From positions 1 through 64,000 of the forward strand of contig NZ_SNUG01000004.1 of assembly GCF_012027325.1 (NCBI RefSeq): DNA of 64,000 nt, read 5' to 3'. The DNA is from Thermococcus sp. M39. Lineage in GTDB: Archaea > Methanobacteriota_B > Thermococci > Thermococcales > Thermococcaceae. The translations under genes were made by a program, and so were the position numbers. Shown one piece after another: positions 5,711 through 37,483 of this stretch. Within the stretch, counting starts at the first letter, position 1, and each line of letters begins with the position of its first letter. Under the pieces are notes generated by a model that saw only the letters and a program-made list of their open reading frames with translations, did not search any database and was not told where the DNA came from.

Positions 5711-5727
5711 ATGGGAGTGTGGAACAA

Positions 5728-7758: not shown

Positions 7759-7759
7759 A

Positions 7760-8119: not shown

Positions 8120-8496
8120 AGAAGAACACTCTTTAAGGCGTTCAAGGCCTTTCTTCCATATTTTAAGTATAACCTATACCACCAATAGATTTCATCTGAA
8201 GGAAGTTCTGCTATTCCATTGGCTATCTTTCTGACTTTTTCTCGATTTATGACAGTTTTAACTGTTTGAGCAGCTAAAATGATTCTGAGGGCACTTTCTT
8301 CATCTATCTCAAAAAATATTAACCCATTCCTATATTGTTTCACGGTTTTTGCGGGTATTCTACTTAAGAGAGTTTCTTTGAGGATAGTAACTTTCCATCC
8401 TTTTAATTTAGTGTAATACACTCTTTCCCCATTTTCGGATTTCCGATACACTCTAAGTGACGGCTTTGGTGAAAGGCTCAATTTAAACTGTGCCAT
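8116..8496 (-). CDS. Conserved-looking small protein downstream of PglZ
   Basis: The 126-residue protein begins MAQFKLSLSPKPSLRVYRK, after an AGGAGGGAGA site. It has a beta-rich first half and a helical C terminus (EIYWWYRLYLKYGRKALNAL). It overlaps the PglZ gene by 14 bp and is the last gene of the DUF499-PglZ operon, so it probably belongs to the same complex. I do not recognise the family. No nuclease or ATPase motif is visible. Confidence 0.6.
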   Translation of the reverse strand: MAQFKLSLSPKPSLRVYRKSENGERVYYTKLKGWKVTILKETLLSRIPAKTVKQYRNGLIFFEIDEESALRIILAAQTVKTVINREKVRKIANGIAELPSDEIYWWYRLYLKYGRKALNALKSVLL

Positions 8497-12711: not shown

Positions 12712-12802
12712 GATAACCACCCATTTCAGCCAATACTCTTATAACTATTGATGATGCAAACTTATAAGGGTTGTTATAAATTATTCTCGGGATGGTGAAA
12801 AC
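12712..12802. promoter_or_regulatory. Divergent promoter region between DUF499 and DUF1156 genes
   Basis: The 91-bp gap holds two TATA-like elements: GTTATAAATTA for the plus-strand methylase and, on the minus strand, AGTTATAAGAG for the ATPase. The central segment CTTATAAGGGTTGTTATAA could serve either direction. The arrangement suggests joint control of methylase and ATPase genes. Confidence 0.5.
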
Positions 12803-18367: not shown

Positions 18368-18982
18368 TTATTCCCTAAGCCCAACTGAATTAAGATAACC
18401 AAATGAGAAAAAGAAGAAATTCAGTAAATCAAAATTTAATCCCTTAACTACTCCTTCATCATGTTCTCTATTTCTTTCAATCTCCTTCTCGGCTCTAGCT
18501 CTTGTTTCGACGTCAAAACTACCCGTCAACATGCTTTCACTCGTCAAGTCAAGCATTGTATTGAGAGCTTCATCAAGATTCTCGACCTTACTCATTGCTT
18601 TCTCAAACTCCACCTGTATCTTTGCAACATCCTCCGCTCCAGGCCCTTCGGCGATGCTCTCAACTATGTCCTTGCTGAACTGAATAAAGTCAGCAGAAAC
18701 TTTAACAAGCTCTCTCTGCAACTCAGCTTCCTCCATTAACAGCAAAAGGCGCTTTGCTTGTATTATTCTCTGCTCTAATGCCAAATATTTAACTGCACTC
18801 CTCTTCAATAGGGCTTCATCCCCAAGCTTTGCAGCTTCCTTTCCCTGTAAAAATACCCTACGCTTGAAATTTTCGAGGTTATTTATGTATTGTTTTAAAG
18901 CCATCTTAGCCTTTCGCATTCTAACTTTTCTTTCAATCTCTTTTTCTTCCTTAGATTTCCAAAACTTGACTACAGGAATCAC
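18368..18982 (-). CDS. ESCRT-III/Snf7-like helical protein C, likely frameshifted near its end
   Basis: The protein has a basic first half and an acidic second half, with long helices in the ESCRT-III arrangement: RKAKMALKQYINNLENFKRR, then LEQRIIQAKRLLLLMEEAEL, then AKIQVEFEKAMSKVENLDEA. The last 30 residues as read (…LLNFFFFSFGYLN…) are unlike the rest. Deleting one A near 18471-18480 would give an ending EIEEIENMMKE with a stop at 18448, a plausible MIT-interacting helix. It overlaps the upstream kinase gene by 4 bp and is the last gene of the operon. The fold assignment comes from pattern only. Confidence 0.6.
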   Translation of the reverse strand: MIPVVKFWKSKEEKEIERKVRMRKAKMALKQYINNLENFKRRVFLQGKEAAKLGDEALLKRSAVKYLALEQRIIQAKRLLLLMEEAELQRELVKVSADFIQFSKDIVESIAEGPGAEDVAKIQVEFEKAMSKVENLDEALNTMLDLTSESMLTGSFDVETRARAEKEIERNREHDEGVVKGLNFDLLNFFFFSFGYLNSVGLRE

Positions 18983-21900
18983 CCGCCATTTTCCCTCTTA
19001 ATGCTGTGCACCAGAACCTTGAGCCTTTCTACGAAATCTTCACTAATAGGTAAGTCCTCCTTAATCAGCGCCTCAACCGTGCTTATCGCGTTCGTTAAGT
19101 CCGTGACGTTTTGCACCGTGTAGAACTTCAGGTCGTTGAGCGCGTTGAGGAGCTCCGCCTTTCTGTTGAGCTCAGCATAGGCTAAAGCTAACTTTCCTAA
19201 AGCTTCGACGACCATTCGCCTGTTCTTTAGGACTTCATCAGCAGTCTTACTTTGTTTTAGTGCTTCCATACTCTTTGCTAAGGATTTCTTCAGTTCTTCA
19301 ACCTCTTTTTCAAGCTCTGCTTTTCTCTTCTCTGCTTTGCTGAGCTTTTCCAAGTCCTTGAAAAACTCATCAACCGACTGGTATCTAGCTTCCTTCTTCT
19401 TGGCTAAGAGCTTCTCAAAAATTGCATCGTATTTTGAAAGCTCTGGATCTATTTTTGAGGGTGGAATGAACTTGTAGTTCTCATCTACTATTTTGCCGAA
19501 GACCTCCTCGTAGGTATAGCCCTCGAAGGGCAACCTGCCGGTGAGGAGCTCGTAGAAGGTAACTCCTAACTGCCAGATGTCAGTTCTTGCATCAGTATTA
19601 CCATACTTGCTTGGCATCAGTTGTTCTGGTGCCGCATACAATGGTGAGTAGCCAGCAGAGCTCATTCTCCCAGAAGTTGCCGTTCCAATCTTTGCCAGTC
19701 CCCAGTCGGTAATCTTGGGCGTTAAGTCGGATTTCAGGAGGATGTTCAAAGGTTTCAGGTCGCGGTGGTAGATGCCCTTGCTGTGGGCGTACTTCAGCCC
19801 CTCGACTATACCCTTGATTAATTTTAAGGCCCTTTTCTCATCAACAGGCTTCGGGTACTTGTCAAGGTCTCTGACGACCTTATCCCCTACCTTTGCTCCC
19901 TCGATGTACTCCATCTCAAGGTATGGAACTGGCAGAATGTCTACGTCGTAAAGCTTCACTATGTTTGGATGATTGAGGTGAAGCCATGTTGAGACCTCAC
20001 GGATGAAGGTCTTGCTCGTCCTCTCGTCTATCCTCGGTATCTTGAGTGCAACCACTTTTCCGTCCTTCTTGCGCTTGACCTTGAAGACCTTTGCAAAACC
20101 TCCCTCGCCGAGGAACTTGAGGGGTTCGTAGCGGGAGAGAAGTTCTACAGGAAATCCTGGGATTAGTGAACTTGTAGTGCTTTCCGTTTTCTCCCTCTTT
20201 TCTGGGACTGGTACCGGAGCTGGTTTCTTCGAGGAGGATTGCAATGGAGCTTTCGCCAGTTTTGCTCTCTCTTTTTTGAGTGGGGGTTTGGGTTTTTCTA
20301 CAGCTGATTGTCTCTCCTTTGATTTATCCCTCATCTTCAAGGCAGCGCCAATGATGCCTAGAACTATGAGCCCAGTAAGGAGGTAGGTTTTGGGAATTCC
20401 TCCCCCTGTTGCTGTCTGAGCAGTTTGGGTTAGAGCTGGCGAGTCTCTCCCTCCTGAACTCTCACTTGTGATTGTTGTAGTGGATGAAGTGGAACTGGTT
20501 GTTTGAGATGGGATAGTGGTTTGCGGTTTTATCAGGATTAGACTTGCTGTGATATTTGTCTTCTCACCAGGGTTAATAGTTACAATCTTCGTGAAGTTCT
20601 GATATCCCTCCTCAACGACCTTCAATTCATAAGTTCCAGGAGTGAGGTTAAGTGTTAATGGGGTTATTCCATGATAAGTTCCGTTAATGTAAACTCCCGC
20701 TCCAAGAGGATTAGAGTTAATAATAAGAGTCGCTAGCTGAGCATTGAGTTGGACATTAACTACTGTAGTTTTATTTGGATTGATAGTTACTGTTGTGTTA
20801 TAACTGTGATAACCTGTTTTGGATGCCTTTAAAGAGTGCTGGCCAGTTGGGAGCATATAGTTTTCTAATGGGGTATCACCTACGTAGTTCCCGTCAATGT
20901 ATACTCTGGCTTTTGGAGGATCAGAGTACACAGTTAAATAACCAGAATCCAAGCTCAGATTGGCAGTTGTGTTTTTAGTTTTCTCATAGGATACCTCCTT
21001 TGAGAGGGATACATAATACACTTTGTTAGAAGTTCCGAAGGCAATATGCTTCATTTCGGGGGATATCGCAAGGCTGTGAACAGAGAAGGTGAGATGATAT
21101 GAGTCCACAACATTTCCTTCAATGTCAAATAGATATACTCCACTTCCGCCTCCCGAGACTATCAGACTTCCATTTTCACTAACAGCGACGTCATTGACAG
21201 GATTTCCAGTATCGTAACTCCACTGCAATTGTCCCTTCTTTGTGAATAGATACACAATACCAAGGCCACTCTTTTCAGTTCCTACAGCTATATAATTGCC
21301 ATCATTACTTATTGAAATGCTTGAAACGCCCCCCTGAGTTTTGTAGTCCCATACGAGATTTCCGGTAGTATTGAAAACGTAAATGTGACCGGATGAATAA
21401 TTGGATGTGGAAGTGCCAACAACAACCAAATCATCGTTTATGAACTTGACAACCCTTACATTCTGAGGAATAGGAACTTTCCAGATAAGATGCCCTGTGA
21501 TGTCAAAGAGATAAACTCCCAGTTCATAAAAACCAACCGCTATGTATTTTTCGCTTTTTGAAAATGCTATTCCCTTTTCTGTGACGTATCCTCTTATGTC
21601 TGGATAGTCCCATAGTAACTCGCCTGTGATGTTATAAAGGATTATAACTCCATTGCACTCAGTCGCTATGTACTTGCTTCTTGGAGATATTGTGACTGCA
21701 TGAAAAGCATTTTCTGGAGAGCCTGCAATCTCTGGAGGTATTAATTTGTTCGTAAGTTGGCCATCTCTGTTCAGGATGTAAAGACCCCCTTTGCTCCCAA
21801 CTGCTATATACCTGCCATCTGGGGAGACTGAAATGCCAGATACCCATGATGATATCTGATATCTCCACCTGAGAGTACCGTTTAGGGAAAGTCCATATAT

Positions 21901-22185
21901 CTCGCTTTTTTCAGATGTTGATGTTCCGATGACTATGAAATCCCCCGTAGATGGCATGTCGATATCCTGTATAGGAGTGGCTGTGGTGTACGTGAAGGTA
22001 GGAGACAGTAAATTCTCCCCCAAGACTATTTGAGAACTGATACTTGAGAACAACAAAACTATGAACAGAACTATTGAGAATAGTTCTGAGACAGTTCTCT
22101 TCTTTGTTTGAGGAATTACTCCCCGAACTTCTCTGCCTGCTTTTTCTGTTTTCCAATCTTCCTTGGATTCCCAGAGACGGATCAT
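18979..22185 (-). CDS. Transmembrane Hanks-type Ser/Thr kinase with propeller and two PEGA domains
   Basis: The order is: signal/membrane segment (LFSIVLFIVLLFSSI, about residues 35-50); an outer beta-propeller of WD40/PQQ type (about 60-400, repeats such as GISVSPDGRYIAVGSKGG); two PEGA domains (VYSDPPKARVYIDGNYVGDT and IINSNPLGAGVYINGTYHGI, about 418-555); a Ser/Thr-rich linker; a membrane helix (about 600-618); a basic linker; and a kinase domain from about 686. The kinase has GEGGFAKVFK, the VALKI lysine, HRDLKPLNILL and TDWGLAK, with DWG replacing the usual DFG, plus APEQL. A helical C-terminal module shared with the other two kinases follows. It probably senses envelope state and phosphorylates the ESCRT-like partners; substrates are inferred. 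Confidence 0.85.
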   Translation of the reverse strand: MIRLWESKEDWKTEKAGREVRGVIPQTKKRTVSELFSIVLFIVLLFSSISSQIVLGENLLSPTFTYTTATPIQDIDMPSTGDFIVIGTSTSEKSEIYGLSLNGTLRWRYQISSWVSGISVSPDGRYIAVGSKGGLYILNRDGQLTNKLIPPEIAGSPENAFHAVTISPRSKYIATECNGVIILYNITGELLWDYPDIRGYVTEKGIAFSKSEKYIAVGFYELGVYLFDITGHLIWKVPIPQNVRVVKFINDDLVVVGTSTSNYSSGHIYVFNTTGNLVWDYKTQGGVSSISISNDGNYIAVGTEKSGLGIVYLFTKKGQLQWSYDTGNPVNDVAVSENGSLIVSGGGSGVYLFDIEGNVVDSYHLTFSVHSLAISPEMKHIAFGTSNKVYYVSLSKEVSYEKTKNTTANLSLDSGYLTVYSDPPKARVYIDGNYVGDTPLENYMLPTGQHSLKASKTGYHSYNTTVTINPNKTTVVNVQLNAQLATLIINSNPLGAGVYINGTYHGITPLTLNLTPGTYELKVVEEGYQNFTKIVTINPGEKTNITASLILIKPQTTIPSQTTSSTSSTTTITSESSGGRDSPALTQTAQTATGGGIPKTYLLTGLIVLGIIGAALKMRDKSKERQSAVEKPKPPLKKERAKLAKAPLQSSSKKPAPVPVPEKREKTESTTSSLIPGFPVELLSRYEPLKFLGEGGFAKVFKVKRKKDGKVVALKIPRIDERTSKTFIREVSTWLHLNHPNIVKLYDVDILPVPYLEMEYIEGAKVGDKVVRDLDKYPKPVDEKRALKLIKGIVEGLKYAHSKGIYHRDLKPLNILLKSDLTPKITDWGLAKIGTATSGRMSSAGYSPLYAAPEQLMPSKYGNTDARTDIWQLGVTFYELLTGRLPFEGYTYEEVFGKIVDENYKFIPPSKIDPELSKYDAIFEKLLAKKKEARYQSVDEFFKDLEKLSKAEKRKAELEKEVEELKKSLAKSMEALKQSKTADEVLKNRRMVVEALGKLALAYAELNRKAELLNALNDLKFYTVQNVTDLTNAISTVEALIKEDLPISEDFVERLKVLVHSIKRENGG

Positions 22186-22239
22186 ACCTCACACCCAATT
22201 TTCTATTTTTATGCTATGCATCGGAACATTAAACATTAC

Positions 22240-23373
22240 CTATCCTTTCCACACCACTACGGTCACATTGTCCTTCGTCACTGGCAGGGCATCTTCAATC
22301 AGCTTTCTAACAATCTCTTCCGCACTCTTTCCTTGCGATACAATCTCTGCAATTCTGCTGTCATCAACGTAGTCGTGCAGTCCGTCAGTGCTCAGCAACA
22401 AAACATCACCCCTCTCAAGCTCCCACTCGTAGAAATCAACGCCGAAGTCAATACCCAAGGCTTTAGTGATAATATTTCTCATTGGGTGCCTTTTAGCTTC
22501 TTCCTCCGTTATCTCCCCCTTATCAAGAAGTTGTTGGACAAAGGAGTGATCTTTAGTTCTTGAAACAATTTTTCCGCCCCTTATGAGGTAAGCCCTGCTG
22601 TCGCCGGTGTTTGCTATAATCGCTTTTCCGTTTCTGATAAATGCCGTAACTAATGTTGTTCCCATTCCCTCTCTCTCACCAATGGCGTTCTTTTTAATCT
22701 TCTTGTGGGCAAGCTCATGGGCCTTTCCTAAGAGCGCCTTAACTTCTTCCTCGCTCATTTCCTTAGTGTCTTCCCGCTCAAAGATCTCCTTGAGTGTATC
22801 AACAGATATTTGTGAAGCAACTTCGCCGGCGTTGTGTCCGCCCAGCCCATCGGCAACCGCTAATAGATATGCATCAGGAAGTTTGAGGATGAGGAGATTG
22901 TCCTCATTGTTCTCCCTGTTGCCGATGTGGGAAATTCCAAAGGCCCTTTCAGCTTTTACCTCGATGAAAGAGTCAGTTTTTCTGACCTCAGTTGAAGATT
23001 CCTTTGACTGACGAGAGCGATAAATATAGACACCAGCTCCAACTCCAGCAAGCAGGAAAAGCCCGAGAATGGGCAAAAGTGACATTTCTGACTCTTCTGA
23101 CTTTGGCAGGCTTAGGACAACTTCTTTTTTCTCTCCAGGAGTTAGCGTTACTGTTGTTGCATTCCACGCTTTTCCATTGGTGACGTTGATAATATAAACT
23201 CCTGGGTTGAGCGTTATGTTGAGAGAAGTTCTGCCTTTAAGTGTGCCGTTTATGTAAATGGGGGCATTAACAGGCTCAGATGTTATTACTAAAGTACCAT
23301 TAATGGGAACAACTCCCCCTGCAACAAGACCGGTTAAAAATAAAAAAATAAACAAGAAAACAGCGTTTTTCAT
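22240..23373 (-). CDS. Membrane PP2C-type Ser/Thr phosphatase with PEGA ectodomain
   Basis: A signal peptide (FLFIFLFLTGLVAGG) is followed by an external PEGA domain (ITSEPVNAPIYINGTLKGRT, to about residue 92), one membrane helix (LLPILGLFLLAGVGAGVYIY) and a cytosolic PP2C/PPM phosphatase from about 140. The metal-binding motifs are VADGLGGHNAGEVAS, ANTGDSRAYLI, STDGLHDYVDD and KDNVTVVVW. PP2C enzymes reverse Hanks-kinase phosphorylation. The PEGA ectodomain is of the same type as in the kinase downstream, suggesting the two read the same external cue. The start overlaps the second kinase gene by 4 bp. Confidence 0.9.
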   Translation of the reverse strand: MKNAVFLFIFLFLTGLVAGGVVPINGTLVITSEPVNAPIYINGTLKGRTSLNITLNPGVYIINVTNGKAWNATTVTLTPGEKKEVVLSLPKSEESEMSLLPILGLFLLAGVGAGVYIYRSRQSKESSTEVRKTDSFIEVKAERAFGISHIGNRENNEDNLLILKLPDAYLLAVADGLGGHNAGEVASQISVDTLKEIFEREDTKEMSEEEVKALLGKAHELAHKKIKKNAIGEREGMGTTLVTAFIRNGKAIIANTGDSRAYLIRGGKIVSRTKDHSFVQQLLDKGEITEEEAKRHPMRNIITKALGIDFGVDFYEWELERGDVLLLSTDGLHDYVDDSRIAEIVSQGKSAEEIVRKLIEDALPVTKDNVTVVVWKG

Positions 23374-25184
23374 GCATTGTCCTCCTTTACTTCCATTTTT
23401 ATGTGGGAAATTAACTCATTGAGTCTCTGTGCAAATTCATTGCCAATTGGAATGTCCTCGTTGATGTAGTATTTCAAGTATTCTCTAGCAGCTTCAACGT
23501 CCTTCTTGAGTTCTTCGCTCTTTACATAATACTTCAGGCTTCCAAGAAGCTCCAATAACTCTGATTGTGAATTAAGCTCACAGTAGAGCATAGCAAGCTT
23601 TTGGTAAAGATCAAGGATCTCAAGCGTTTTGAGTTTTGCCTCTTCAGCGCTTCTGCTCTTCTTAAGCTCCAGCTTGCTTCTGTTGAGGTCTTTCTTTAAC
23701 TCTGCTACTGTCTTTTTGAGCTCCTTTCTCTTTCTAACAACCTTTTCGAGCTCTTCTAAGGCTTTCAGAAGCTCATCAGCACTTTGGAAGCGGTCTTCTT
23801 TTCTCTTTGCCAATGCCTTTTCAAAGAACTGATCAAAGATGTAAAGTTCTGGATTGAATTCGCTTGGCTTCTTTGGTAAATAGTTCGGATCGGTTATTTT
23901 TCCTATCAACTCTGCTTGGGAGTGACCTTCATATGGGGGTTGCCCAGTGAGAAGCTCGTAAAGAACCGCCCCAACTTGATAGAGATCGGTTCTATGATCT
24001 GTATGTCCGTAGTGGCTTGGCAGTAACTGCTCAGGAGCAGCATAGAGAGGAGTGTACCCTGTAGCAGTCTTCGAAGATGTTGTGACGCCTATCTTTGATA
24101 ATCCCCAATCTGTAAGCTTCGGAGTAAAATTATGCTTAAGCAAGATGTTTAGGGGTTTAATGTCCCTGTGCAGAACATTTTGGGAGTGGGCGTATTTGAC
24201 AGCTTGAGTAACTCCTTTGACAAACCTAAGTGCAAGCTCTTCATCAACAGGCTTGGGATATTCTTCCAAAGAACGGATTGTTTTTCCATTCAGGTTAATC
24301 CCTTCAACATACTCCATTTCTAAGTGCGGGATTGGGAGAATATCAGCTTCATAGAGTTTCACGATGTTTGGATGATCCAGATGAAGCCACGTGCCAACTT
24401 CTCTGAGGAAGACCTTACTGGTCTTTTCATCAATGCGCGGGATTTTTACGGCTACAATCTTGCCATCACTCTTGCGCTTGGCCTTGAAAACTTTAGCAAA
24501 ACCACCTTCACCGATAAACTCTAAAGGCTCATATTTTTTGAGAAGTTCCGAGGGAAAGAGTTCTTTTGCTCTTGAGATGGACTTTTTTGTATGTGGCGTT
24601 TGTTTTTTGGTTCGGTTTTTGTTTCTAAGATATAGCCCTATTCCTGCTCCAATTCCAACCATGAGTATTACTACCACAAAAAAGCTATCTGAACTTGAGG
24701 ATGCGCTAGAATATCCACTACTAGAATATCCACTGTATGTTGTTGGCTTTTTGACAGTGAAGCTAACATATTTTGTTATGGAACTTCTTTTATCACTTAC
24801 GACCCCGGGATCTGTGTACTCTACCTTAACTTGGATTGATTTAGACCCCTCTTCTTCGTTGTTTGGAACAAAAATTTTGAACTTAAATGTTCTCTGCTCA
24901 CCCTCTGGAATTTTAGATACTGATGCAGAAGGTGGTGAGACAACAATATTGCTGTACCCTTCAACTGTGGGTGTTACTACAACATCATTGGCATCATCAT
25001 CTCCCACTTCTTTAACAGTAACTGTTAATGTGGCTGCTTCCCCAGGTTCCAGTACTGTAGGGAAGATATTCACATTGACTTCAATTTTTGTAGTTCCACC
25101 AATAGCAGCATTCAATGGAGTTGTACATATTAAAAAACCAAAAATAATTAAAAGAACAATAGACTTTACATGTCTCCTCTTCAT
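23370..25184 (-). CDS. Transmembrane Hanks-type Ser/Thr kinase with CARDB-like ectodomain
   Basis: A signal peptide (SIVLLIIFGFLICTTPLNAA) precedes an external beta-sandwich (VNVNIFPTVLEPGEAATLTV through about residue 150) resembling CARDB/NEW-type domains. A Ser/Tyr-rich linker and one membrane helix (FFVVVILMVGIGAGIGLYL, about 170-188) follow. The kinase spans about 220-480 with GEGGFAKVFK, AVKIPR, HRDIKPLNILL, TDWGLSK (DWG instead of DFG) and YAAPEQLLP. The C-terminal helical part (LYQKLAMLYCELNSQSELLE) matches the other two kinases. It lies 3 bp after the Vps4-like gene and overlaps the phosphatase gene, so all three are cotranslated. Confidence 0.88.
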   Translation of the reverse strand: MKRRHVKSIVLLIIFGFLICTTPLNAAIGGTTKIEVNVNIFPTVLEPGEAATLTVTVKEVGDDDANDVVVTPTVEGYSNIVVSPPSASVSKIPEGEQRTFKFKIFVPNNEEEGSKSIQVKVEYTDPGVVSDKRSSITKYVSFTVKKPTTYSGYSSSGYSSASSSSDSFFVVVILMVGIGAGIGLYLRNKNRTKKQTPHTKKSISRAKELFPSELLKKYEPLEFIGEGGFAKVFKAKRKSDGKIVAVKIPRIDEKTSKVFLREVGTWLHLDHPNIVKLYEADILPIPHLEMEYVEGINLNGKTIRSLEEYPKPVDEELALRFVKGVTQAVKYAHSQNVLHRDIKPLNILLKHNFTPKLTDWGLSKIGVTTSSKTATGYTPLYAAPEQLLPSHYGHTDHRTDLYQVGAVLYELLTGQPPYEGHSQAELIGKITDPNYLPKKPSEFNPELYIFDQFFEKALAKRKEDRFQSADELLKALEELEKVVRKRKELKKTVAELKKDLNRSKLELKKSRSAEEAKLKTLEILDLYQKLAMLYCELNSQSELLELLGSLKYYVKSEELKKDVEAAREYLKYYINEDIPIGNEFAQRLNELISHIKMEVKEDNA

Positions 25185-25187
25185 TTT

Positions 25188-26372
25188 TCACCCTCCAAAC
25201 TCCTCCGCCCACTTTTCATACCTTTCAATTTCCTTCCTAGTCAGTGGAGACTTAATCTTCTTAAACGCCTCCTCAAAGTCCCTCATCTCAAGCGGTCTCG
25301 TCCTTAAAGCACGCTTTCTGAGTTCTTCAAATGGAAGCGAAGCGAGCTTGTACAAATCTTTGTTCTCCTCCCGTATCATGTTCCAAATCGCTTGCTGGCA
25401 GAGGTTTCTGATGTCTCTACCAGAATAAAACCTCCTAACGCTTTCCTCGGCTATCGCGTCTAAATCAAGTTTTGAGATATCCAATCCACGCGTGTTAATT
25501 TTGATTATTTCCTTTGTAGCCTTTTTATCAGGTAGCGGAACATAAATCCTCCGTGGAAAACGCGAGAGAACTGCCTCATCCAAGTCCCATGGAGTATTTG
25601 TTGCCGCTAACGTTAAAACAAGCAAGTCGCTCTTCTTATCTTGAAAGCCATCGAGTTCAGTCAGAAGGGTAGAAAGCATCCTCCTTGAAGCTTCGCTTGT
25701 TTCATTGGAACGCTTGGTGGTTAGGGCATCTATTTCATCAATGAAAACTATTGACGGCGCCCTCTCCCTTGCCACTTCATAGAGGGCCGTTATGATTTTG
25801 CTCGACTCTCCGAAGTACTTGCTGAGGACATTTGATGCCTTGACGTTAAAGAACGTGGCGTGCAAACTTCCAGCAGCAGCTGAAGCGAGTAAAGTTTTAC
25901 CTGTTCCAGGAGGTCCGAAGAGGAGTATGCCCTTCCACGGTTGGATTGACTCGGGCTTTTGAAGAGCAGCAATGACGACGGTCTCCATGAGCAGGACTTT
26001 TACATCGTTAAGACCTCCAATGTCGTTCCACGTCACGCTTGACTTGGCTATGAGGCCCTTCACGTATTCCCTGAACTGGTCTTGCTCTTTCTCTTCTTCG
26101 GCTTTCGTTTTTCTGCCCTCAGCACTTACGACGGCTTTTTTGCCGAATTCACCTTTTTCAATCTTCTTGGCAGTTTGTTCCCATTTCTTCGCTTTTTTCA
26201 GGTAGAAGTCGCTGTTGTAGGATACATGTTTTGCGAGCTCTTTCAAAAGGGTGGCACACTTTAAGGCCTTCTTCCTTGCGGTTTCCATATCTCCTTTAGC
26301 AACAGCTTTATCAAACTCCCTCTTCGTTTTCTCAAACTCGTTCAATAAAGGACCAGATAAATCAACGGGCAT
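25188..26372 (-). CDS. Vps4/CdvC-like AAA ATPase with N-terminal MIT-like domain
   Basis: Residues 1-80 form a three-helix MIT-like domain (NEFEKTKREFDKAVAKGDME, TARKKALKCATLLKEL). A linker and one AAA module follow: SVTWNDIGGL, Walker A LFGPPGTGKTLLASAAA near 156, pore loop KASNVLSKYFGESSK, Walker B SIVFIDEIDAL near 210, sensor LAATNTPWDLDEAVLSRF. The protein ends EIERYEKWAEEFGG, very like the C-terminal helix of Vps4/katanin-class AAA proteins. Vps4 hexamers pull apart ESCRT-III filaments through MIT contacts. ATG 26372 is chosen because GGAGGT lies just upstream; the earlier TTG overlaps that site. Its neighbours encode ESCRT-III-like proteins and kinases, which supports a membrane-remodelling role. 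Confidence 0.85.
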   Translation of the reverse strand: MPVDLSGPLLNEFEKTKREFDKAVAKGDMETARKKALKCATLLKELAKHVSYNSDFYLKKAKKWEQTAKKIEKGEFGKKAVVSAEGRKTKAEEEKEQDQFREYVKGLIAKSSVTWNDIGGLNDVKVLLMETVVIAALQKPESIQPWKGILLFGPPGTGKTLLASAAAGSLHATFFNVKASNVLSKYFGESSKIITALYEVARERAPSIVFIDEIDALTTKRSNETSEASRRMLSTLLTELDGFQDKKSDLLVLTLAATNTPWDLDEAVLSRFPRRIYVPLPDKKATKEIIKINTRGLDISKLDLDAIAEESVRRFYSGRDIRNLCQQAIWNMIREENKDLYKLASLPFEELRKRALRTRPLEMRDFEEAFKKIKSPLTRKEIERYEKWAEEFGG

Positions 26373-26374
26373 TT

Positions 26375-29300
26375 TCAAACCTCCTTCTCAATCTTGTGGA
26401 GTAAAACTCTGAGATGATCAATAAATTCATCACTAACTGGAATCCCCTCCTTCATCATGAGCTCTATTTGGGATATGACGTTCAACAACCTATCACGGTT
26501 CTCCCTCGTGTAGAACTTCAAGTCTTCGAGAGCATTCAGAAGTTCAGCCTTGTCATTAAGTTTAGCACTCAGGAGAGCTACCTTTGCAGTTTTTTCGACA
26601 GCTTCTCTCGTAAGCCTCTGAATTTCATCCCTTGAGGGGCTTCTCTTGAGTGTTTGCTTAGTTTTTTTGAGACTCTTCTTTAGTTCTTCACGCTCCCTGT
26701 GGAGCGCTTCTAAAGATTCCAAGGCCCTCAGGAACTCTTCGACACTCTGGAATCTATCTTTCTTGCGCTTCGCCAAAAGCCTCTCGACTATTCCGTCATA
26801 CTTGGCTAAGGAGGGATTGATCTTGGAAGGAGGCATGGGCTTAATGTCTTTAGCCAGAATCTTGCCTGCTAATGCTCCGGGCGAGTAGCTCTCGTAAGGC
26901 AGTCTTCCAGTTAAGAGTTCGTAGAATATGACGCCGAGCCCGTAAATGTCAGTCCTGTGGTCTGGATTTCCATAGGTTTTTTCGTCTAGCTGCTCTGGGG
27001 CTGCATATTGTGGTGTGAGACCTTTGATTGTTGAAGATGTTCTGACGCTTATCCTTGCAAGCCCCCAGTCAGTAATTTTTGGCGTTAAGTCACTCTTAAG
27101 GAGAACATTTAGAGGCTTTAGGTCGAGATGCCAAATCCCCTTTGAATGAGCATGCTTTAATCCTTCAGCAATGCCTTTAATGATTTTTAGGGCTGTTTTC
27201 TCATCAACTGGTTTTGGATACTTGTCAAGATCCCTAACAAGCTTTCCATCCACATTTACACCCTCAACATATTCCATTTCTAAGTAGGGAATTGGTAGAA
27301 TATCTGCTCTGTAAAGTGTTACAATATTTGGATGGTTTAGGTGGTACCACGCAGCGACTTCCTTTAAAAAGAGTGAGCTTGTCTTTTCATCTATTCTGGG
27401 GATTTTGAGGGCAACTATCTGACCATCGCTTTTTCTCTTGGCTTTGAATACTTTGGCAAAACCCCCTTCTCCAATGAATTCTAACGGAGCATAATTATCT
27501 AAGAGTTCAGGTGGGAAGCCTTTGTCTTGAAGAACCACATCATCTTCAGATGGTTTATGTTTTTCCAAAGTACTCTCTTTTATCCCTCCTTTACGCTTCC
27601 ACTCTCTCAATATTTCTAATGCCGTATCATAGTCCTCTTTCGTACGTAGCACTAGAAAGATTTCTCTGATATTTTTAGCTTCCTTTGAAAACTCTTCAAC
27701 ACTTTCAAGAAATGTCTCTACAACACGTTTAAACGGACAACCTGAAGGTCCAGCTCTTATTGCTGGGAAGGCTATCCTCGTAGCTCCCAATTCGTCTGCT
27801 TTCCTCAAAGCAGCTATTATTGATAATTTTAGAGTTTCCTTCAGTTTTTTATTCCATCTTGCTTTGCAGTCAGGACCAAATGTGTTAATGACATATTTGA
27901 CGCCATTTCGTTCTAACTTAAAAGGTGGTGTCACAACTACTTCTCCGTGTCTGATCCAGTCCCTTCCAATTTGATTCTTCATGATATCTCTGCTTATTTT
28001 TCTGTATTTGTTGACATCTCCAACAGCTGCTTTGGCAACATACCTAGAAACGCCTCCTCTGTAACTTAAATATTTATCCACAGAGTTTACTATCGCTTCA
28101 GCAGAAAAGTGTATTATGTTTCCTTGGACAATACTAAAGGTTAACTTACCGAATTTTATTGAAGCCCCACTCTTTTTCCTCTTCATTACAAAAAGTGGGA
28201 TTAACAGAGCTAAAACTATTATTAAGTACAGATACTCATTTTTCACCCAAAACACTTGTTTCTGTACAGTTATGCTGTTAGCCAGCTCAGAACCATCAAC
28301 ATTATTGTTTGTAGTGGTCTTTTGATTTACTCTTTCAACAGATCCAATAATCGTAGTCGCTTGTTCAGCGAGTTTCTTGGCGTTCTCATAATCTCCAGCG
28401 CTAAATAACTCCCTGGCTCTTTCTAAAAGGTTTTCGGCCTCTGTTGTGTTGAATCCCTCTTCCTTTTTCTGGCTGATTATAGCTTCGGCACTCAGGATAG
28501 CATTATTGGCTTCTTGTATTATCTCTATCTTCTGCCTTATTTCCTCCAAGAGTGTAATGGCACTAGGATATTCCTCATTTTTTATTTTTTCTTGTGCATC
28601 CGCCAAACTGCTTTCAAACTCACTAACATTCGCTATGCCTTCAACATTTTTCAATTCAAGTTTGACCTCATTAAGAAGAGTTTGAGCTCTTTCAGCTTCT
28701 GAACTCTTTATGTTTTGCAGTTCTCCATTTGCTTGGTTTATGAGTTCAATTGCCCTATCATAGTTGCCTGCATTGAGTTCTTTCTCCGCCTGTACGATCA
28801 GCGTTTTTACTGTAGTAACGTCAAATCCTTTTGATTCTAGAGTAGCGTATGTCTCCTTAACTCTATTGAGCAATTCTTTGGCGTAGTCGTGCCGAGCTTT
28901 TGAAATAATGTCTTCTGCCTTGCTGATCTCGCTTTTTGCTTTGTCAAGCTCTCCTATCCTGAGAAGATGTTCTGCGTTAAATAGAGCATTATCAACTTCT
29001 TCTGACAAATGGATACTATCGTTTCTAAGCTTGCTGAGGAGTTTCCTAAGAGAAGTCAGCTTGGAATATGTTGCAATCACTTCATCTGAAGCAAAAGCGT
29101 AAAGATAACCATCATCAGCTCCAACATAAAGAATCCCATTGGCAATTACTGGAGATGAGCGGACGCTTGAGTTAATCAGGTACTTCCATTTTAATTTTCC
29201 GCTATCAGCATGGACAGCATAGAGATAGCCGTCATCACAACCGAAATAAACCGTGCCTCCAGATATTGTGGGGGCATTCTGAATGGGTCCTCCAACCTCA

Positions 29301-30292
29301 AATTGCCATTTTGTTTGGCCGTTTTGAGTGTCAAATGATGCAAGGTAGTGTTTGTGATACAGCTTTGAATAATCTGTTGCAAAGAGATAGAGCTTCCATC
29401 GTTCATAATAATAGTAAGAGTAAATAGTACCACCAACTACAGAAACATCTGTTGCAGATGAGGATATTGCCTCGAATTTATTAAGACTATCTGAAGCACT
29501 TACATAGTCTTTCCTTCCAAGCTCTCGCTTCCACTTGACTTTTCCACTCATTACATCAAGCGCATAGAGGTATTTTGCACCTGCAATAACATAAACCGTT
29601 CCGCTGTCAACGACTACAGACCCGCTTGTTATTGGACCTCCAGCATCAAAAGTCCATATGAGAGCTCCGCTCTTAACCCCTAATGCATAAACCTTCCCAT
29701 CGTAAGAACCAGCTATTAAGAGTTGCCCATAGACGGCAGGCGAGGCTTCAACTTTTCCTTCAGTTTTGAATACCCACTTCTTCTCTCCGGTAGTTGCGTT
29801 TAGGGCATAAATAAATCCCCCAGTAGAGCCGAAAACTACCAAACCATACTCCACAACTGGAGAGGATACTATTGACCCCAAAGCTTCAAATTTCCACTTT
29901 AGTTTCCCTGTTTTAGCATCCAATACGTAGAGGTTTCCGTCTAAAGAACCAACGTAAACAGTGTTCTTCCAGACTGCTGGAGAAGCGTCTATTCTGCCAT
30001 TTGTTTTAAACTTCCATTTGACCTCCCCAGTTAGGGAATCAATCGCATAGAAGTAGTAGTCGCTGGAACCGAAGTAAAGAATCCCTTCGTAAACCGCTGG
30101 AGATGATACTATTGGTCCCCCAGTTTTAAACTTCCAAAATAATTCAAGAGGGGGTTCTAAAGCATCGGTGGCAACTCCTGTATGTTGAGGATTGTTCTTG
30201 TAGACCCTCCACTCGGTAGCCAAAGCGAGATTTGTAACTAGAGAGATAACTATTAGTGCTGTAATGAAGGTGCTGAATGTAGCTTTTTTCAT
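26375..30292 (-). CDS. Transmembrane kinase with PQQ propeller, helical repeats and macro domain
   Basis: This 1305-residue chimera reads: signal peptide (1-25); PQQ/WD-like beta-propeller (about 30-405, repeats such as VYVGSLDGNLYVLDAKTGKL); helical repeats of the form LLERARELFSAGDYENAKKL (about 415-650); a membrane helix (YLYLIIVLALLIPLFVMKRK, about 685-703); a macro domain (FSIVQGNIIHFSAEAIVNSV, AFPAIRAGPSGCPF, about 711-897); and a Hanks kinase from about 932 (GEGGFAKVFK, ALKIPRIDE). Its catalytic loop reads HLDLKPLNVLL, with Leu replacing the usual Arg, and DFG is DWG. Macro domains bind ADP-ribose, so the kinase may be tied to NAD-derived signals. The shared C-terminal helical module follows. 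Translation is coupled to the Vps4-like gene. Confidence 0.87.
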   Translation of the reverse strand: MKKATFSTFITALIVISLVTNLALATEWRVYKNNPQHTGVATDALEPPLELFWKFKTGGPIVSSPAVYEGILYFGSSDYYFYAIDSLTGEVKWKFKTNGRIDASPAVWKNTVYVGSLDGNLYVLDAKTGKLKWKFEALGSIVSSPVVEYGLVVFGSTGGFIYALNATTGEKKWVFKTEGKVEASPAVYGQLLIAGSYDGKVYALGVKSGALIWTFDAGGPITSGSVVVDSGTVYVIAGAKYLYALDVMSGKVKWKRELGRKDYVSASDSLNKFEAISSSATDVSVVGGTIYSYYYYERWKLYLFATDYSKLYHKHYLASFDTQNGQTKWQFEVGGPIQNAPTISGGTVYFGCDDGYLYAVHADSGKLKWKYLINSSVRSSPVIANGILYVGADDGYLYAFASDEVIATYSKLTSLRKLLSKLRNDSIHLSEEVDNALFNAEHLLRIGELDKAKSEISKAEDIISKARHDYAKELLNRVKETYATLESKGFDVTTVKTLIVQAEKELNAGNYDRAIELINQANGELQNIKSSEAERAQTLLNEVKLELKNVEGIANVSEFESSLADAQEKIKNEEYPSAITLLEEIRQKIEIIQEANNAILSAEAIISQKKEEGFNTTEAENLLERARELFSAGDYENAKKLAEQATTIIGSVERVNQKTTTNNNVDGSELANSITVQKQVFWVKNEYLYLIIVLALLIPLFVMKRKKSGASIKFGKLTFSIVQGNIIHFSAEAIVNSVDKYLSYRGGVSRYVAKAAVGDVNKYRKISRDIMKNQIGRDWIRHGEVVVTPPFKLERNGVKYVINTFGPDCKARWNKKLKETLKLSIIAALRKADELGATRIAFPAIRAGPSGCPFKRVVETFLESVEEFSKEAKNIREIFLVLRTKEDYDTALEILREWKRKGGIKESTLEKHKPSEDDVVLQDKGFPPELLDNYAPLEFIGEGGFAKVFKAKRKSDGQIVALKIPRIDEKTSSLFLKEVAAWYHLNHPNIVTLYRADILPIPYLEMEYVEGVNVDGKLVRDLDKYPKPVDEKTALKIIKGIAEGLKHAHSKGIWHLDLKPLNVLLKSDLTPKITDWGLARISVRTSSTIKGLTPQYAAPEQLDEKTYGNPDHRTDIYGLGVIFYELLTGRLPYESYSPGALAGKILAKDIKPMPPSKINPSLAKYDGIVERLLAKRKKDRFQSVEEFLRALESLEALHREREELKKSLKKTKQTLKRSPSRDEIQRLTREAVEKTAKVALLSAKLNDKAELLNALEDLKFYTRENRDRLLNVISQIELMMKEGIPVSDEFIDHLRVLLHKIEKEV

Positions 30293-30359
30293 AATTCCCT
30301 CACCTAGTTAGGCCTAATTAAAATCTGATTCTAACAGAAAAGATTAAATGAAATCAGAT

Positions 30360-30974
30360 TCAGAGCTCTTCAAGTTCAAGGTGTTTCTTATCCTTTCTAT
30401 CTTCTCCAGTCACCTTCTCTGCCGCAATTTCCGGCTCAAGCTCACCCTCTTTTACAGCCCTGATAGTACTCAGGATTTCTTCAAGCTCTTCATCTGCCTC
30501 AAAATTAACCCCAGTAGCAAGAGCTTGATCAGTGTAGCCAAGCATGCGGTTCAAATTCTCATTCAAGTTCTGAGCATCGAGTTGTATTTCAACAAGTTTT
30601 TGCTCCAGCTCTTCAGGAGACATATTATGGAGGATCTTCCATGTTGGAGTACCTTTCAAAATAGCCTCATTTTCCTTAATTATCATAAGATTGCTAACAA
30701 GCATCATCTGCTTGTTTAGCTGTGCATGTGTATTCTGCAAATTCCTCTTTCTCTGATTAAGGGTCTTTATCTTTGTCGCTATCGTCAGCTCCTCACTCTT
30801 GCTCCTAGCTCTCTTAGCTTGTTCAAAAAGAAGTGCAATCTGCCTGTCTATCTCCACCATCTCATTCTCTATTCTTCTAATCTGCATGTCAAGCTTTACT
30901 TGAGTCTCCCTTAATTGATTTAGTGAAATGTCAAGCGGGTTCTTTTTGCCAAAAAATCTAGAGAAGAAGGTCAT
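30360..30974 (-). CDS. ESCRT-III/Snf7-like protein A
   Basis: The 204-residue protein begins MTFFSRFFGKKNPLDISLNQ, a hydrophobic/basic N terminus like that of ESCRT-III proteins. A long helical hairpin follows (LDMQIRRIENEMVEIDRQIA ... IKTLNQRKRNLQNTHAQLNK), then MLVSNLMIIKENEAILKG and NMSPEELEQKLVEIQLDAQN, the spacing seen in CHMP/CdvB proteins. The C terminus is acidic (EELEEILSTIRAVKEGEL) and could bind a MIT domain. The gene starts directly after the stop of its paralogue, and 67 bp separate it from the macro-kinase gene. ESCRT-III is inferred from architecture; a PspA/Vipp1-type relative is the main alternative. Confidence 0.65.
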   Translation of the reverse strand: MTFFSRFFGKKNPLDISLNQLRETQVKLDMQIRRIENEMVEIDRQIALLFEQAKRARSKSEELTIATKIKTLNQRKRNLQNTHAQLNKQMMLVSNLMIIKENEAILKGTPTWKILHNMSPEELEQKLVEIQLDAQNLNENLNRMLGYTDQALATGVNFEADEELEEILSTIRAVKEGELEPEIAAEKVTGEDRKDKKHLELEEL

Positions 30975-31568
30975 TTAAAACTCCTCCATCTCTTTTGATA
31001 GCTCTTTTTCCTTGATCTTTTCAAGGACTTCCTCAGTATCTGCCTCTCCGGCTTCAACCTTTGCCCAAGCCTCCATAAGTTCTCTTTCCGTCTGATCTTC
31101 AGTGGCTTCAAACTCTGCAATCTCCATCTCAAAGACGCGGTTGAGGCTGCTGACCATCTCATCGAACTCCTTCCCATCAAGGTTCACCTTAATGAGGAAC
31201 CTTTCTAGCAGTTCTGGTTCAACCTTGATGAGCTTGTCCCATATGCCGACTTTCCTAAGCTCTTTCTCATACCTCTTAACAATAATGAGGTTCTTCACGA
31301 GGGTGTACTGCCTTTGGGCTGTCATAAAATCCCTCAACTTAAGCTTCTGCTCCATATCGAGACTCTTAATCTCTTGAGCCAACATCTTCTTCTTTAGTAC
31401 ATCAGCACCAACCCCTTCTTGGAAGAGCTGCTTCTTCTTCCTTTCAATGTTGTTTATCTCCTTTTTTGTCCTTTCCAAGCGGTTCCTAAGCCTTATCTCC
31501 TCCTCCTGTAGCTCTCTTAAAGAGAGTTTCTCAATCGGGTTTTTTCTAAATCTATCTAGTATCTTCAT
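30975..31568 (-). CDS. ESCRT-III/Snf7-like protein B
   Basis: This 197-residue paralogue of the next gene has the same layout. It has a basic start (MKILDRFRKNPIEKLSLREL), a long hairpin (LRNRLERTKKEINNIERKKK and QEIKSLDMEQKLKLRDFMTA), the YTLVKNLIIVKRYEKELRKV segment and an acidic C-terminal tail (WAKVEAGEADTEEVLEKIKE). The Leu/charged pattern of the tail could serve as a MIT-interacting motif. It overlaps the 611-residue protein gene by 4 bp and abuts the following paralogue with TAA immediately followed by ATG. The pair probably co-assembles. Confidence 0.65.
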   Translation of the reverse strand: MKILDRFRKNPIEKLSLRELQEEEIRLRNRLERTKKEINNIERKKKQLFQEGVGADVLKKKMLAQEIKSLDMEQKLKLRDFMTAQRQYTLVKNLIIVKRYEKELRKVGIWDKLIKVEPELLERFLIKVNLDGKEFDEMVSSLNRVFEMEIAEFEATEDQTERELMEAWAKVEAGEADTEEVLEKIKEKELSKEMEEF

Positions 31569-33400
31569 CTTCTAACCCCCTTCATCAATACCAATCCAAA
31601 ACCATCAATGTACTTAACAAACCCATTCTCCTCCTTAGCAACCTCATAAAATGCCTTCTTAACATAAGCTTCATTCCCACAATCCTTCACTTCACTAAAT
31701 GGCAGGTAGTCCCTTCCGATCAGCTTTGACTTTATGCACTCCTTCACTTTTGCATAGACTTCCTCATCGAGTTCCATGCGTACCAATGGAACGAGGGCCT
31801 TCGCATATCTGTCATTTGGATTGTAAATGACCTCTCCAGTCTCAACATCAAGTAACAGTAAAGAAACGTTCTCAGAATAGAAGTTCTGGTGGAACTGATC
31901 GGAGTTAACATACTTCTTTATCCGCTCTTCAAAGCCTAATGGGGAAGCTATGAGAAGAATCGTGCGCTCATTCTTTGATGAATCCCTTGCATCGACCAAG
32001 TAAGCGTTTACATCAGCAAGCTCCAGCGGGTCAGTATCAAACCCATACTCCGCAAGCTTTTCGACCCTTGTTATATAGTGTCCTTTTAAGAGGAGTTTTT
32101 CTTTGCCTCCTAAGAGCTTCTTCTCTTTTAGCTTAACTTCAAGATATCTGTTTTCTGGCAGGTTCTTCAGAGTTTTTTCGTCGAGTGTAGAGGCGAATTT
32201 GGAAGTATCCTCCCCCAATTTTTCGCTTATTTCTTCCACTTTGTATGTTTTACCCAAGAGCTTAACTTTGTCCTTGAGCTTGCTCTTCAATCTTCCCAAA
32301 AAGTTCAGCTCTTGTATCCTCGCCTCTTCCCTAATCACGAGGCGGGATCCTTTTTCAAGGTTCTCTGAAGCCTTGAGGATCTCATTTATCTTTCTACGCA
32401 GCTCCTGATCTTTTTCCATTAGCTCCATTTCTTTTCTCTTAAGTTCCATTTCTTTCTGTTTTAATTGGACACTCCTCCTCTGTATTTCCTCTTCAAGTCT
32501 TTTTACTTCCTTCATCATGCTTTCTCTGGCTCTTTCAAGCTCAGCTTGGAGCTTTTCTTGAAGTTCTTTGTCCTTCAATTCAATCAGTTGTTTAGTAAGC
32601 TTTTCTTTTTCCTTCTCAAATCTTTCAATAAGCTCCTGCTTTTCCCTTTCCAGCCGTTCTATTTCTTCCATGCTTGCGCGTGAAATTTCTTGCACTATCC
32701 TTTCTTTTTCATATTCAAAAGCCTCTGTGATTTCTTTGATATGCTGTCTAAGCTCTTGGACTTTTCTTTCATAAACTGACTTTACCGCCTCTACACTTTC
32801 TTTCTTCTCTTTCTCCCAATCCTCAAGCAACGTTCTGAACCAGTCGTACTTGTTGGCCTCGCTGATCGCTTCGTTGAGTTTTTCCTTGTATTTACCCCAA
32901 GTCTTTTTGAAATAGTACCGCAAGGGCAGTTTTATGTCTGGATTGTTGAGTTGCTCCTCAATCCATTTGTCCACTCCAATATAGTAAGTTTTCAAGAGTT
33001 CTAAAACCTCAGAATCTCTCCTGTAAAGTTTTGTTAGGATGTCATCCTTTGTCATTATCTCGAAGATGTTGTACTTCAGTATCTCATCAACAACTTGGAG
33101 TTCTTCCTTAGTGAATCTCCTCCTAGCTGGGTAAAAATTTTCACCGTTGCTCTCAAAGCTCCATGCGAGTATTGCAAGGGCAGCTTCAAATTTAGCTCTG
33201 AAATTAGTGTCTAAATCCTTCAAGAAGTATCCACATGAGCCATCTAAGTATTTGTCATATGCACTTTTCACGTCATGCCAGAGTCGTTCTCTTCGTGAGA
33301 ATTCTTCAACTAAGATGTCTCTGCCTTGTTTTAGAACTCTTTCGGCTGGCCGTAATAAGTTTTTAACACATTCAATATTTCCATCATCAAAAATTGACAT
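31565..33400 (-). CDS. Coiled-coil protein of the ESCRT/kinase operon, unknown function
   Basis: The 611-residue protein has a helical N-terminal domain (about 1-190), a very charged coiled coil (about 195-365, e.g. ELMEKDQELRRKINEILKAS) and a C-terminal alpha/beta domain (about 370-611) with strands such as NAYLVDARD and SLLLLDVETGEVIYNP. No catalytic motif is visible. It is coupled by a 4-bp overlap to the ESCRT-III-like pair and may be a scaffold or membrane-site adaptor. I do not recognise a named family. Confidence 0.6.
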   Translation of the reverse strand: MSIFDDGNIECVKNLLRPAERVLKQGRDILVEEFSRRERLWHDVKSAYDKYLDGSCGYFLKDLDTNFRAKFEAALAILAWSFESNGENFYPARRRFTKEELQVVDEILKYNIFEIMTKDDILTKLYRRDSEVLELLKTYYIGVDKWIEEQLNNPDIKLPLRYYFKKTWGKYKEKLNEAISEANKYDWFRTLLEDWEKEKKESVEAVKSVYERKVQELRQHIKEITEAFEYEKERIVQEISRASMEEIERLEREKQELIERFEKEKEKLTKQLIELKDKELQEKLQAELERARESMMKEVKRLEEEIQRRSVQLKQKEMELKRKEMELMEKDQELRRKINEILKASENLEKGSRLVIREEARIQELNFLGRLKSKLKDKVKLLGKTYKVEEISEKLGEDTSKFASTLDEKTLKNLPENRYLEVKLKEKKLLGGKEKLLLKGHYITRVEKLAEYGFDTDPLELADVNAYLVDARDSSKNERTILLIASPLGFEERIKKYVNSDQFHQNFYSENVSLLLLDVETGEVIYNPNDRYAKALVPLVRMELDEEVYAKVKECIKSKLIGRDYLPFSEVKDCGNEAYVKKAFYEVAKEENGFVKYIDGFGLVLMKGVRR

Positions 33401-33403
33401 TCT

Positions 33404-33928
33404 TCATCCCTCCAAAAGAGGATCCAAATCTTCTTTCAGCTTTTTAGTCATGTGCTCTACGGCCTCTCCATAGCCTGAAAGGGATAATTTTACCCAAGTT
33501 TTGCCATTCTTTGACTCCATAGTGACCTCAATGTCCACGCGGCCCTTTCTCGTGAGTACGAAGTACTTTGTGGACTTTAAGTCTGAAGAATAGTAACGAA
33601 TGTTGTTTTTAGAAAAAACATAATCTAAAAGCTTTTTAACGATCTCTGGCGGGTCATTGCTCTGATATTCAAGAACCGTTGTAGTAGATCGAATCTGAGA
33701 TCTCAGATCTTTCTCATGCAATACAAAACTCTCCACGTTTTTAGATGAACTGGGATTGAGCTTTGAGAAGAGTTCTTCTGCAAATTCGGAGATTTCATTG
33801 GTCTCAATGATAAAAGTCAAGCCCCTTGGTTTTGAAATTCTTGCGCGCTCTTGCCACTTTTCCAGAAGGTAATCAATTCGTTTTCTTTCTGCATCATCTT
33901 CATAGTTAACAATAAAAAGGTATTTCAT
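33404..33928 (-). CDS. Unknown alpha/beta protein of the ESCRT/kinase operon
   Basis: The 174-residue product starts MKYLFIVNYEDDAERKRIDY and has alternating strands and helices. Its C-terminal beta hairpins (KYFVLTRKGRVDIEVTMESK, KTWVKLSLSGYG) suggest a small antiparallel sheet. It lies 3-4 bp from both neighbours in the same operon. No domain or catalytic residue pattern was recognised. Confidence 0.5.
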   Translation of the reverse strand: MKYLFIVNYEDDAERKRIDYLLEKWQERARISKPRGLTFIIETNEISEFAEELFSKLNPSSSKNVESFVLHEKDLRSQIRSTTTVLEYQSNDPPEIVKKLLDYVFSKNNIRYYSSDLKSTKYFVLTRKGRVDIEVTMESKNGKTWVKLSLSGYGEAVEHMTKKLKEDLDPLLEG

Positions 33929-37415: not shown

Positions 37416-37483
37416 AAGGTTACGAAGTTACGAAAAACGCCCAATTGTATTCATTTACACATTCTTCGTAACCTCGTAACCTT
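37416..37483. repeat. Inverted repeat 2 (19-bp arms, 30-bp spacer), iteron-like
   Basis: The arms at 37416-37434 and 37465-37483 are reverse complements with one mismatch, made of two copies of GTTACGAA. The spacer is 30 bp, the same as in repeat 1, and the right arm overlaps the stop codon of the helicase gene. It could be part of a replication origin, or a hairpin that ends transcription of the helicase operon. Confidence 0.75.

What the first reader, a model, noticed from the sequence alone, without database searches (positions are those of the whole stretch)
26375..30292. Macro domain built into a transmembrane kinase
One chain combines an external PQQ-type propeller, helical repeats, a membrane helix, a macro domain and a Hanks kinase. 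A cytosolic ADP-ribose-binding module next to a kinase domain would link NAD-derived signals with phosphorylation. I do not recall this architecture.
Basis: partly seen in the sequence, partly recalled or inferred. Interest (0 to 1): 0.8.

Follow-up and report, generated by a model that had tools for sequence, protein, structure and literature searches.

The report
ESCRT-locus receptor kinase with reworked macro domain
A heat-loving archaeon carries a membrane receptor kinase, sitting in a known membrane-remodelling (ESCRT) gene cluster, that has captured a copy of an ADP-ribose-binding domain whose binding pocket was then largely rewritten, so it is a rare and real fusion but probably not an ADP-ribose sensor.

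Summary
ORF 26375-30292 (-) encodes 1305 aa: signal peptide, PQQ-type propeller, helical region, one TM helix, an AF1521-like macro domain, a PknB-like Hanks kinase and a helical tail. The host belongs to the order Thermococcales. The gene occupies the kinase slot of the archaeal 'Main' ESCRT locus described in 2024 (ESCRT-III-like pair, MIT-Vps4, PP2C, wH protein, kinases with varied ectodomains). The macro fusion is very rare: 2 of 115 genomes of the class, plus one MAG contig. It has a single origin. All three fused macros carry changes at the ADP-ribose contacts (D20N, N34D, G40R/K, S141R, I144P/A, Y145S, Y176R/L) that are conserved in almost all of 32 stand-alone Thermococcales macros. 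Yet the fused macro is kept (dN/dS about 0.12, 88% identity, best-conserved domain), evolved in a burst and then slowed, and is unusually basic (+11 to +13 against -2 to +7). Best reading: a repurposed juxtamembrane scaffold or polyanion-binding module inside an ESCRT-linked receptor kinase; its ligand is unknown. Standard pipelines would call it an ADP-ribosylglutamate hydrolase, probably wrongly. New variant of a known kind.

The parts
26375..30292 (-). Whole gene, 1305 aa transmembrane macro-kinase
30218..30292 (-). Signal peptide-like segment, residues 1-25
   Evidence: hydropathy
29078..30217 (-). Extracellular PQQ/BamB-type beta-propeller, residues about 26-405
   Evidence: PF13570 3e-68, PF13360 1e-48
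28253..29077 (-). Helical repeat region, residues about 406-680; related region in other kinases of the family
28175..28237 (-). Transmembrane helix, residues about 686-706, ending in KRK
27605..28162 (-). Macro domain, AF1521-like, residues about 711-896
   Evidence: PF01661 9.9e-18; 1HJZ 6e-49; model pLDDT 92.8, TM 0.94 to AF1521
28109..28126 (-). Adenine-site motif QGNIIH: D20 replaced by N
28046..28087 (-). Ribose/diphosphate loop NSVDKYLSYRGGVS (canonical NAANKYLEHGGGVA)
27740..27760 (-). Diphosphate-lid loop IRAGPSG (canonical ISAGIYG)
27518..27604 (-). Linker between macro and kinase, predicted flexible
   Evidence: low pLDDT at about residues 903-924
26723..27505 (-). Hanks-type Ser/Thr kinase, residues about 930-1190; catalytic Lys, HLD (non-RD), DWG and APE present
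   Evidence: PF00069 8e-44; PknB-like fold; motifs
26378..26722 (-). C-terminal helical tail shared by the locus kinases (described as PCI-like in PMC10936438)
25188..26378 (-). Vps4-type AAA ATPase with MIT-like N-terminus, directly downstream
   Evidence: PF00004, PF09336 Vps4_C; synteny
23370..25184 (-). Second kinase, CARDB ectodomain-TM-kinase-tail
22240..23373 (-). PEGA-TM-PP2C phosphatase
18979..22185 (-). Third kinase, propeller-PEGA-TM-kinase-tail
18368..18982 (-). Small helical protein, third ESCRT-III-like candidate
   Evidence: synteny in other loci; no PDB sequence hit
30360..30974 (-). ESCRT-III-like protein a
   Evidence: position and synteny; present in 39 of 94 genomes; no PDB sequence hit
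30975..31568 (-). ESCRT-III-like protein b, paralogue of a
31565..33400 (-). Coiled-coil protein in the position of arCOG09748 (CC-wH)
   Evidence: arCOG membership inferred
33404..33928 (-). 174 aa protein in the position of arCOG08177
   Evidence: arCOG membership inferred

Best explanation
This is one of the modular receptor-type kinases of the archaeal 'Main' ESCRT system. In a recent ancestor a copy of an AF1521-type macro domain, most probably the resident thermococcal one, was placed between the TM helix and the kinase. It lost the canonical ADP-ribose pocket, became strongly basic, and was then kept under purifying selection. The most likely working: the swappable ectodomain senses or binds something at the cell surface; the TM helix passes this to the PknB-like kinase; the kinase phosphorylates ESCRT-locus proteins (ESCRT-III-like, Vps4 or partner kinases) and the PP2C reverses this, tuning membrane remodelling. 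The macro lies about five residues from the membrane and acts as a scaffold or dock that binds a polyanion (anionic lipid headgroups, nucleic acid or phosphoprotein) or a partner protein, so positioning or gating the kinase, rather than as an ADP-ribose receptor or hydrolase. Shown: architecture, locus, rarity, pocket rewriting, constraint, charge shift, fold. Inferred: topology, substrates, macro ligand and role.
For: Domains. Locus synteny: arCOG08177-like, CC-wH, ESCRT-III b, a, kinase, Vps4, PP2C, ESCRT-III c in single-kinase relatives, with the macro-kinase in the same slot, matching PMC10936438. The three fused copies have D20N, A32S, A33V, N34D, E38S, H39Y, G40R/K, S141R, I144P/A, Y145S, Y176R/L, against conserved states in 30-32 of 32 stand-alones. 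Changes fall in pocket columns more than elsewhere, 13/28 against 8/43, p 0.013. Constraint: dN/dS about 0.12, 88% identity, the most conserved domain. One clade (100/100) with a 0.79 stem and short tips. Charge +11 to +13 against -2 to +7 in 31 stand-alones. Fold intact. The ectodomain differs completely between window and G084.
Against: The Gly loops GGV and AGxxG and N31 are kept, so some nucleotide or phosphate may still bind. Single pocket mutations in related macros only weaken them: OiMacroD N30A loses 72% of catalytic efficiency (PMC5413906), and AF1521 Y145R does not abolish binding (PMC7566600). Three fused sequences from two lineages are few, and 4 of 36 pocket positions differ between them. 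Nothing tests phosphorylation of ESCRT proteins. ESCRT-III identity rests on synteny and the paper; sequence search found no PDB relative.
Confidence: 0.6

Rival explanations
1. One reading: the macro domain still binds ADP-ribose or an ADP-ribosylated protein and couples NAD metabolism to the kinase.
For: AF1521-like fold, TM 0.94; GGV and AGxxG loops kept; NCBIfam equivalog NF001662 ([protein ADP-ribosylglutamate] hydrolase) passes its cut-off, 238.6 against 215 bits.
Against: Adenine Asp, ribose Asn, diphosphate-loop Gly/Ser and stacking Tyr are all replaced in all three copies.
Confidence: 0.12
2. The pocket has been re-specified for another small ligand (another nucleotide, a phosphosugar, a phospho-residue); R40/K40, R45 and R141 make it more cationic, so the kinase has a new intracellular ligand switch.
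For: Pocket charge rises from -1 to +2 and N20, D34 and R141 are fixed in all three; glycine loops kept; domain constrained.
Against: Positions 40, 46, 139 and 144 and 176 differ between the two fused lineages, so the pocket is no better conserved than the rest of the domain.
Confidence: 0.2
3. The macro is a passive passenger, caught by recombination among shuffling kinase genes and not yet lost.
For: Ectodomains shuffle freely; the fusion is rare.
Against: dN/dS about 0.12 and 87-88% identity, better conserved than the kinase; shared directional changes.
Confidence: 0.08

Closest known systems
STKs of the archaeal 'Main' clade ESCRT loci (PMC10936438, mBio 2024)
   Same: Locus composition (Vps4, ESCRT-III-like, wH and arCOG08177-like proteins, PP2C); membrane-anchored kinase with variable ectodomain and C-terminal helical (PCI-like) tail
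   Different: The paper mentions no macro domain; here a macro lies between TM and kinase
AF1521-type macro domain (ADP-ribosylglutamate hydrolase family, NF001662)
   Same: Same fold, about 43% identity to AF1521 and up to 59% to thermococcal stand-alones; passes the family cut-off
   Different: Fused inside a receptor kinase; ADP-ribose contact residues replaced; strongly basic
PknB-type bacterial transmembrane Ser/Thr kinases
   Same: Receptor layout with TM and kinase; PknB is the closest solved kinase fold
   Different: PQQ propeller instead of PASTA, macro insert, helical tail, HLD in place of HRD
Non-ADP-ribose-binding macro domains such as macroH2A1.2 and the SARS SUD macro folds (own knowledge, not tested here)
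   Same: Macro fold kept after loss of ADP-ribose binding
   Different: Chromatin or viral proteins, not kinases

Membership tests
Archaeal Main-clade ESCRT system | Vps4 ATPase with MIT-like domain beside the gene | tested here: met
   PF00004 2.8e-40, PF09336 Vps4_C 5.4e-8; MIT-like N-terminus read from sequence only
Archaeal Main-clade ESCRT system | ESCRT-III proteins in the locus | tested here: inconclusive
   Two paralogous 200 aa proteins upstream of Vps4 plus one downstream, syntenic; profile search of PDB finds no ESCRT-III
Archaeal Main-clade ESCRT system | arCOG09748 and arCOG08177 proteins | tested here: inconclusive
   611 aa coiled-coil and 174 aa proteins in matching positions; arCOG profiles not available here
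Archaeal Main-clade ESCRT system | Membrane STK and PP2C phosphatase (in many, not all, loci) | tested here: met
Hanks-type (PknB-like) Ser/Thr kinase | Gly loop, catalytic Lys, HxD, DxG, APE | tested here: met
   GEGGFAKVF, ALKIPR, HLDLKPLN, DWGLA, APEQL; non-RD
Macro domain (fold) | Macro fold and sequence family | tested here: met
AF1521-type ADP-ribose binder/hydrolase | Canonical ADP-ribose contact residues D20, N34, GGGV, S141-A-G-I-Y145, Y176 | tested here: not met
   Replaced in all three fused copies except G41, G42, V43, A142, G143
AF1521-type ADP-ribose binder/hydrolase | Measured ADP-ribose binding or hydrolysis | not testable with these tools
   needs biochemistry

The most novel reading that the evidence does not exclude
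A transmembrane receptor kinase of an archaeal ESCRT machine uses a rewritten macro-domain pocket to read a new phosphate-rich intracellular ligand, or the membrane itself, coupling it to phosphorylation control of membrane remodelling.
Probability: 0.25. Interest if true: 0.75.

Novelty: new variant of a known kind. Interest (0 to 1): 0.48.

Why it matters
It gives a handle on how phosphorylation steers archaeal ESCRT loci, for which I found no experiment. It is a clear case of a metabolic-enzyme fold being captured by a receptor kinase, losing its canonical pocket and being kept for something else. It also warns that an automatic 'ADP-ribosylglutamate hydrolase' label, and NAD-signalling stories built on it, would probably be wrong here. 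The kinase family itself, with constant kinase and tail and swapped ectodomains in tandem arrays, looks like an archaeal receptor-kinase repertoire.

Tried and rejected
Assembly chimera: rejected, because the fusion recurs in two other assemblies. Widespread architecture: rejected within Thermococci (2/115) and in a 197-genome sample of the phylum of G094, where the only macro in a frame over 540 aa is G094's own copy. Viral carriage: no relative found. Plasmid macros listed are under 30% identical, with no kinase named. Defence-kinase membership: PADLOC hits cover only the kinase domain, so they are generic. Macro-kinase arrangement: the joint model is poor in the macro part and does not define an interface. 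Kinase tree: the window kinase groups with non-macro kinases rather than with the other fused ones (95/90), but the AU test does not reject one clade (p 0.076), so kinase swapping is only suggestive. An earlier kinase tree held one row read in the wrong frame and was discarded. Bacterial and eukaryotic genomes at large were not searched for macro-kinase fusions of other kinds.

Full report
Observation. The minus-strand ORF 26375-30292 is open from ATG to stop and encodes 1305 aa. Pfam finds a PQQ/BamB-type propeller in the first 400 residues, a macro domain (735-860) and a protein kinase (936-1182). Hydropathy gives a signal peptide and one TM helix at 685-703. The remaining regions are a helical stretch (406-680) and a helical C-terminal tail (1191-1305). 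Record titles of relatives ('Thermococci archaeon') and the locus literature identify the host as Thermococcales; the genome group searched as 'order' holds one family and six genera.

Surroundings. The gene is the kinase of a compact minus-strand cluster (18368-33928): 174 aa protein, 611 aa coiled-coil protein, two paralogous 200 aa proteins, the macro-kinase, a Vps4-type ATPase, a CARDB kinase, a PEGA-TM-PP2C phosphatase, a propeller-PEGA kinase and a third small helical protein. Relatives with a single kinase (L075, L081) show the base order arCOG08177-like, CC-wH, ESCRT-III b, a, kinase, Vps4, PP2C, ESCRT-III c (kinase and Vps4 order varies little); other Thermococcales have several kinases inserted. 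This is the 'Main' archaeal ESCRT locus of PMC10936438, which describes membrane STKs with a PCI-like C-terminal domain and a phosphatase in such loci and suggests phosphorylation is key to their function. That paper does not mention a macro domain. The ESCRT-III-like pair occurs in 39 of 94 genomes of the order. ESCRT-III and arCOG identities are inferred from position; sequence search against PDB was negative for the small proteins.

Rarity and origin. With a profile of the fused macro, 115 genomes of the class gave only two fused copies, the window and G084. A pattern-based scan of 84,980 species genomes gave two records: QMUE01000020.1 (the G084 contig) and JACDNU010000045.1, a MAG labelled Archaeoglobus. 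The latter's DNA is 94-96% identical to the former over the locus, so mis-binning or recent transfer is likely; its own Archaeoglobus-type macro is separate. The macro tree puts the three fused copies in one clade (100/100) on a stem of 0.79 changes per site with short tips, apart from the Archaeoglobus branch.

Modularity. Window and G084/G094 share TM-macro-kinase but not the ectodomain: 23% alignment identity before residue 680, 87% in the macro, 82% in the kinase, 75% in the tail. G084 and G094 have another propeller plus PEGA domains, and both keep a short remnant of the window-type PQQ ectodomain upstream, separated by an inserted ATPase gene. Conversely G047 has the window's PQQ-helical ectodomain (65%) on a different kinase without a macro. 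The closest kinases by sequence, about 80% identical (G030, G082), have no macro. So ectodomains, and perhaps kinases (not significant), are exchanged.

Pocket. Stand-alone Thermococcales macros (32 compared) keep nearly every ADP-ribose contact: D20, N34, GGGV, S141, I144 in all, Y145 in 31, Y176 in 30. All fused copies examined have N20, S32, V33, D34, S38, Y39, R/K40, R141, P/A144, S145, R/L176 (contact list from own knowledge of AF1521-ADP-ribose structures, partly confirmed in PMC7566600). Among columns invariant in stand-alones, changes are enriched in the pocket (13/28 against 8/43, Fisher p 0.013; pocket list partly from memory). The fold is intact: model pLDDT 92.8, 1.1-1.2 A from AF1521. 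The domain is not decaying: dN/dS about 0.12 between window and G084, similar to stand-alones. Its net charge, +11 to +13, lies outside the range of 31 stand-alones, -2 to +7, and it begins about five residues after the TM helix. The pocket is not completely destroyed: glycine loops remain, and single pocket mutations in related macros reduce rather than abolish activity (PMC5413906). Therefore I call loss of canonical ADP-ribose binding likely, not proven.

Mechanism. Shown: a receptor-type layout, a probably active non-RD Hanks kinase (catalytic Lys, HLD, DWG, APE present), a phosphatase partner and ESCRT context. Inferred: the ectodomain senses an outside cue; the kinase and PP2C set phosphorylation of ESCRT components; the basic juxtamembrane macro docks on membrane, polyanion or a partner and positions the kinase. 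The flexible linker (low confidence at about 903-924) would allow this. An altered-ligand pocket is the main rival (0.2); ADP-ribose sensing is unlikely (0.12).

Annotation trap. NF001662, '[protein ADP-ribosylglutamate] hydrolase', scores 238.6 bits against a cut-off of 215, so automated annotation may give this receptor kinase a hydrolase name.

Verdict. A real and rare architecture inside a known system, with evidence that the imported domain was repurposed. New variant of a known kind; interest 0.48.

Noticed in passing
window 3310-15658: Defence genes beside the ESCRT locus: PbeA-like (3310-5481), PbeC/DndD-like (5719-7758), HmaC/DUF499 (9394-12720) and HmaB/DUF1156 methylase (12803-15658) by PADLOC.
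   Followed up: partly
window 37482-42469: UvrD/GajB-like helicase (677 aa) next to a 985 aa protein without any Pfam match.
   Followed up: no
L076, L077, L078, L079, L080: Tandem arrays of several receptor kinases per Thermococcales ESCRT locus with constant kinase and tail and different ectodomains; an open frame of 1314 aa in L080 holds two kinase domains.
   Followed up: partly
L033:2887-4673 and L066:2133-3889: Remnant of the PQQ ectodomain followed by an inserted ATPase gene just upstream of the macro-kinase; a wHTH/nucleotidyltransferase-like pair is inserted before Vps4.
   Followed up: partly
L066 (JACDNU010000045.1): MAG labelled Archaeoglobus holds a contig 94-96% identical to a Thermococci contig: probable mis-binning or recent transfer.
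   Followed up: partly
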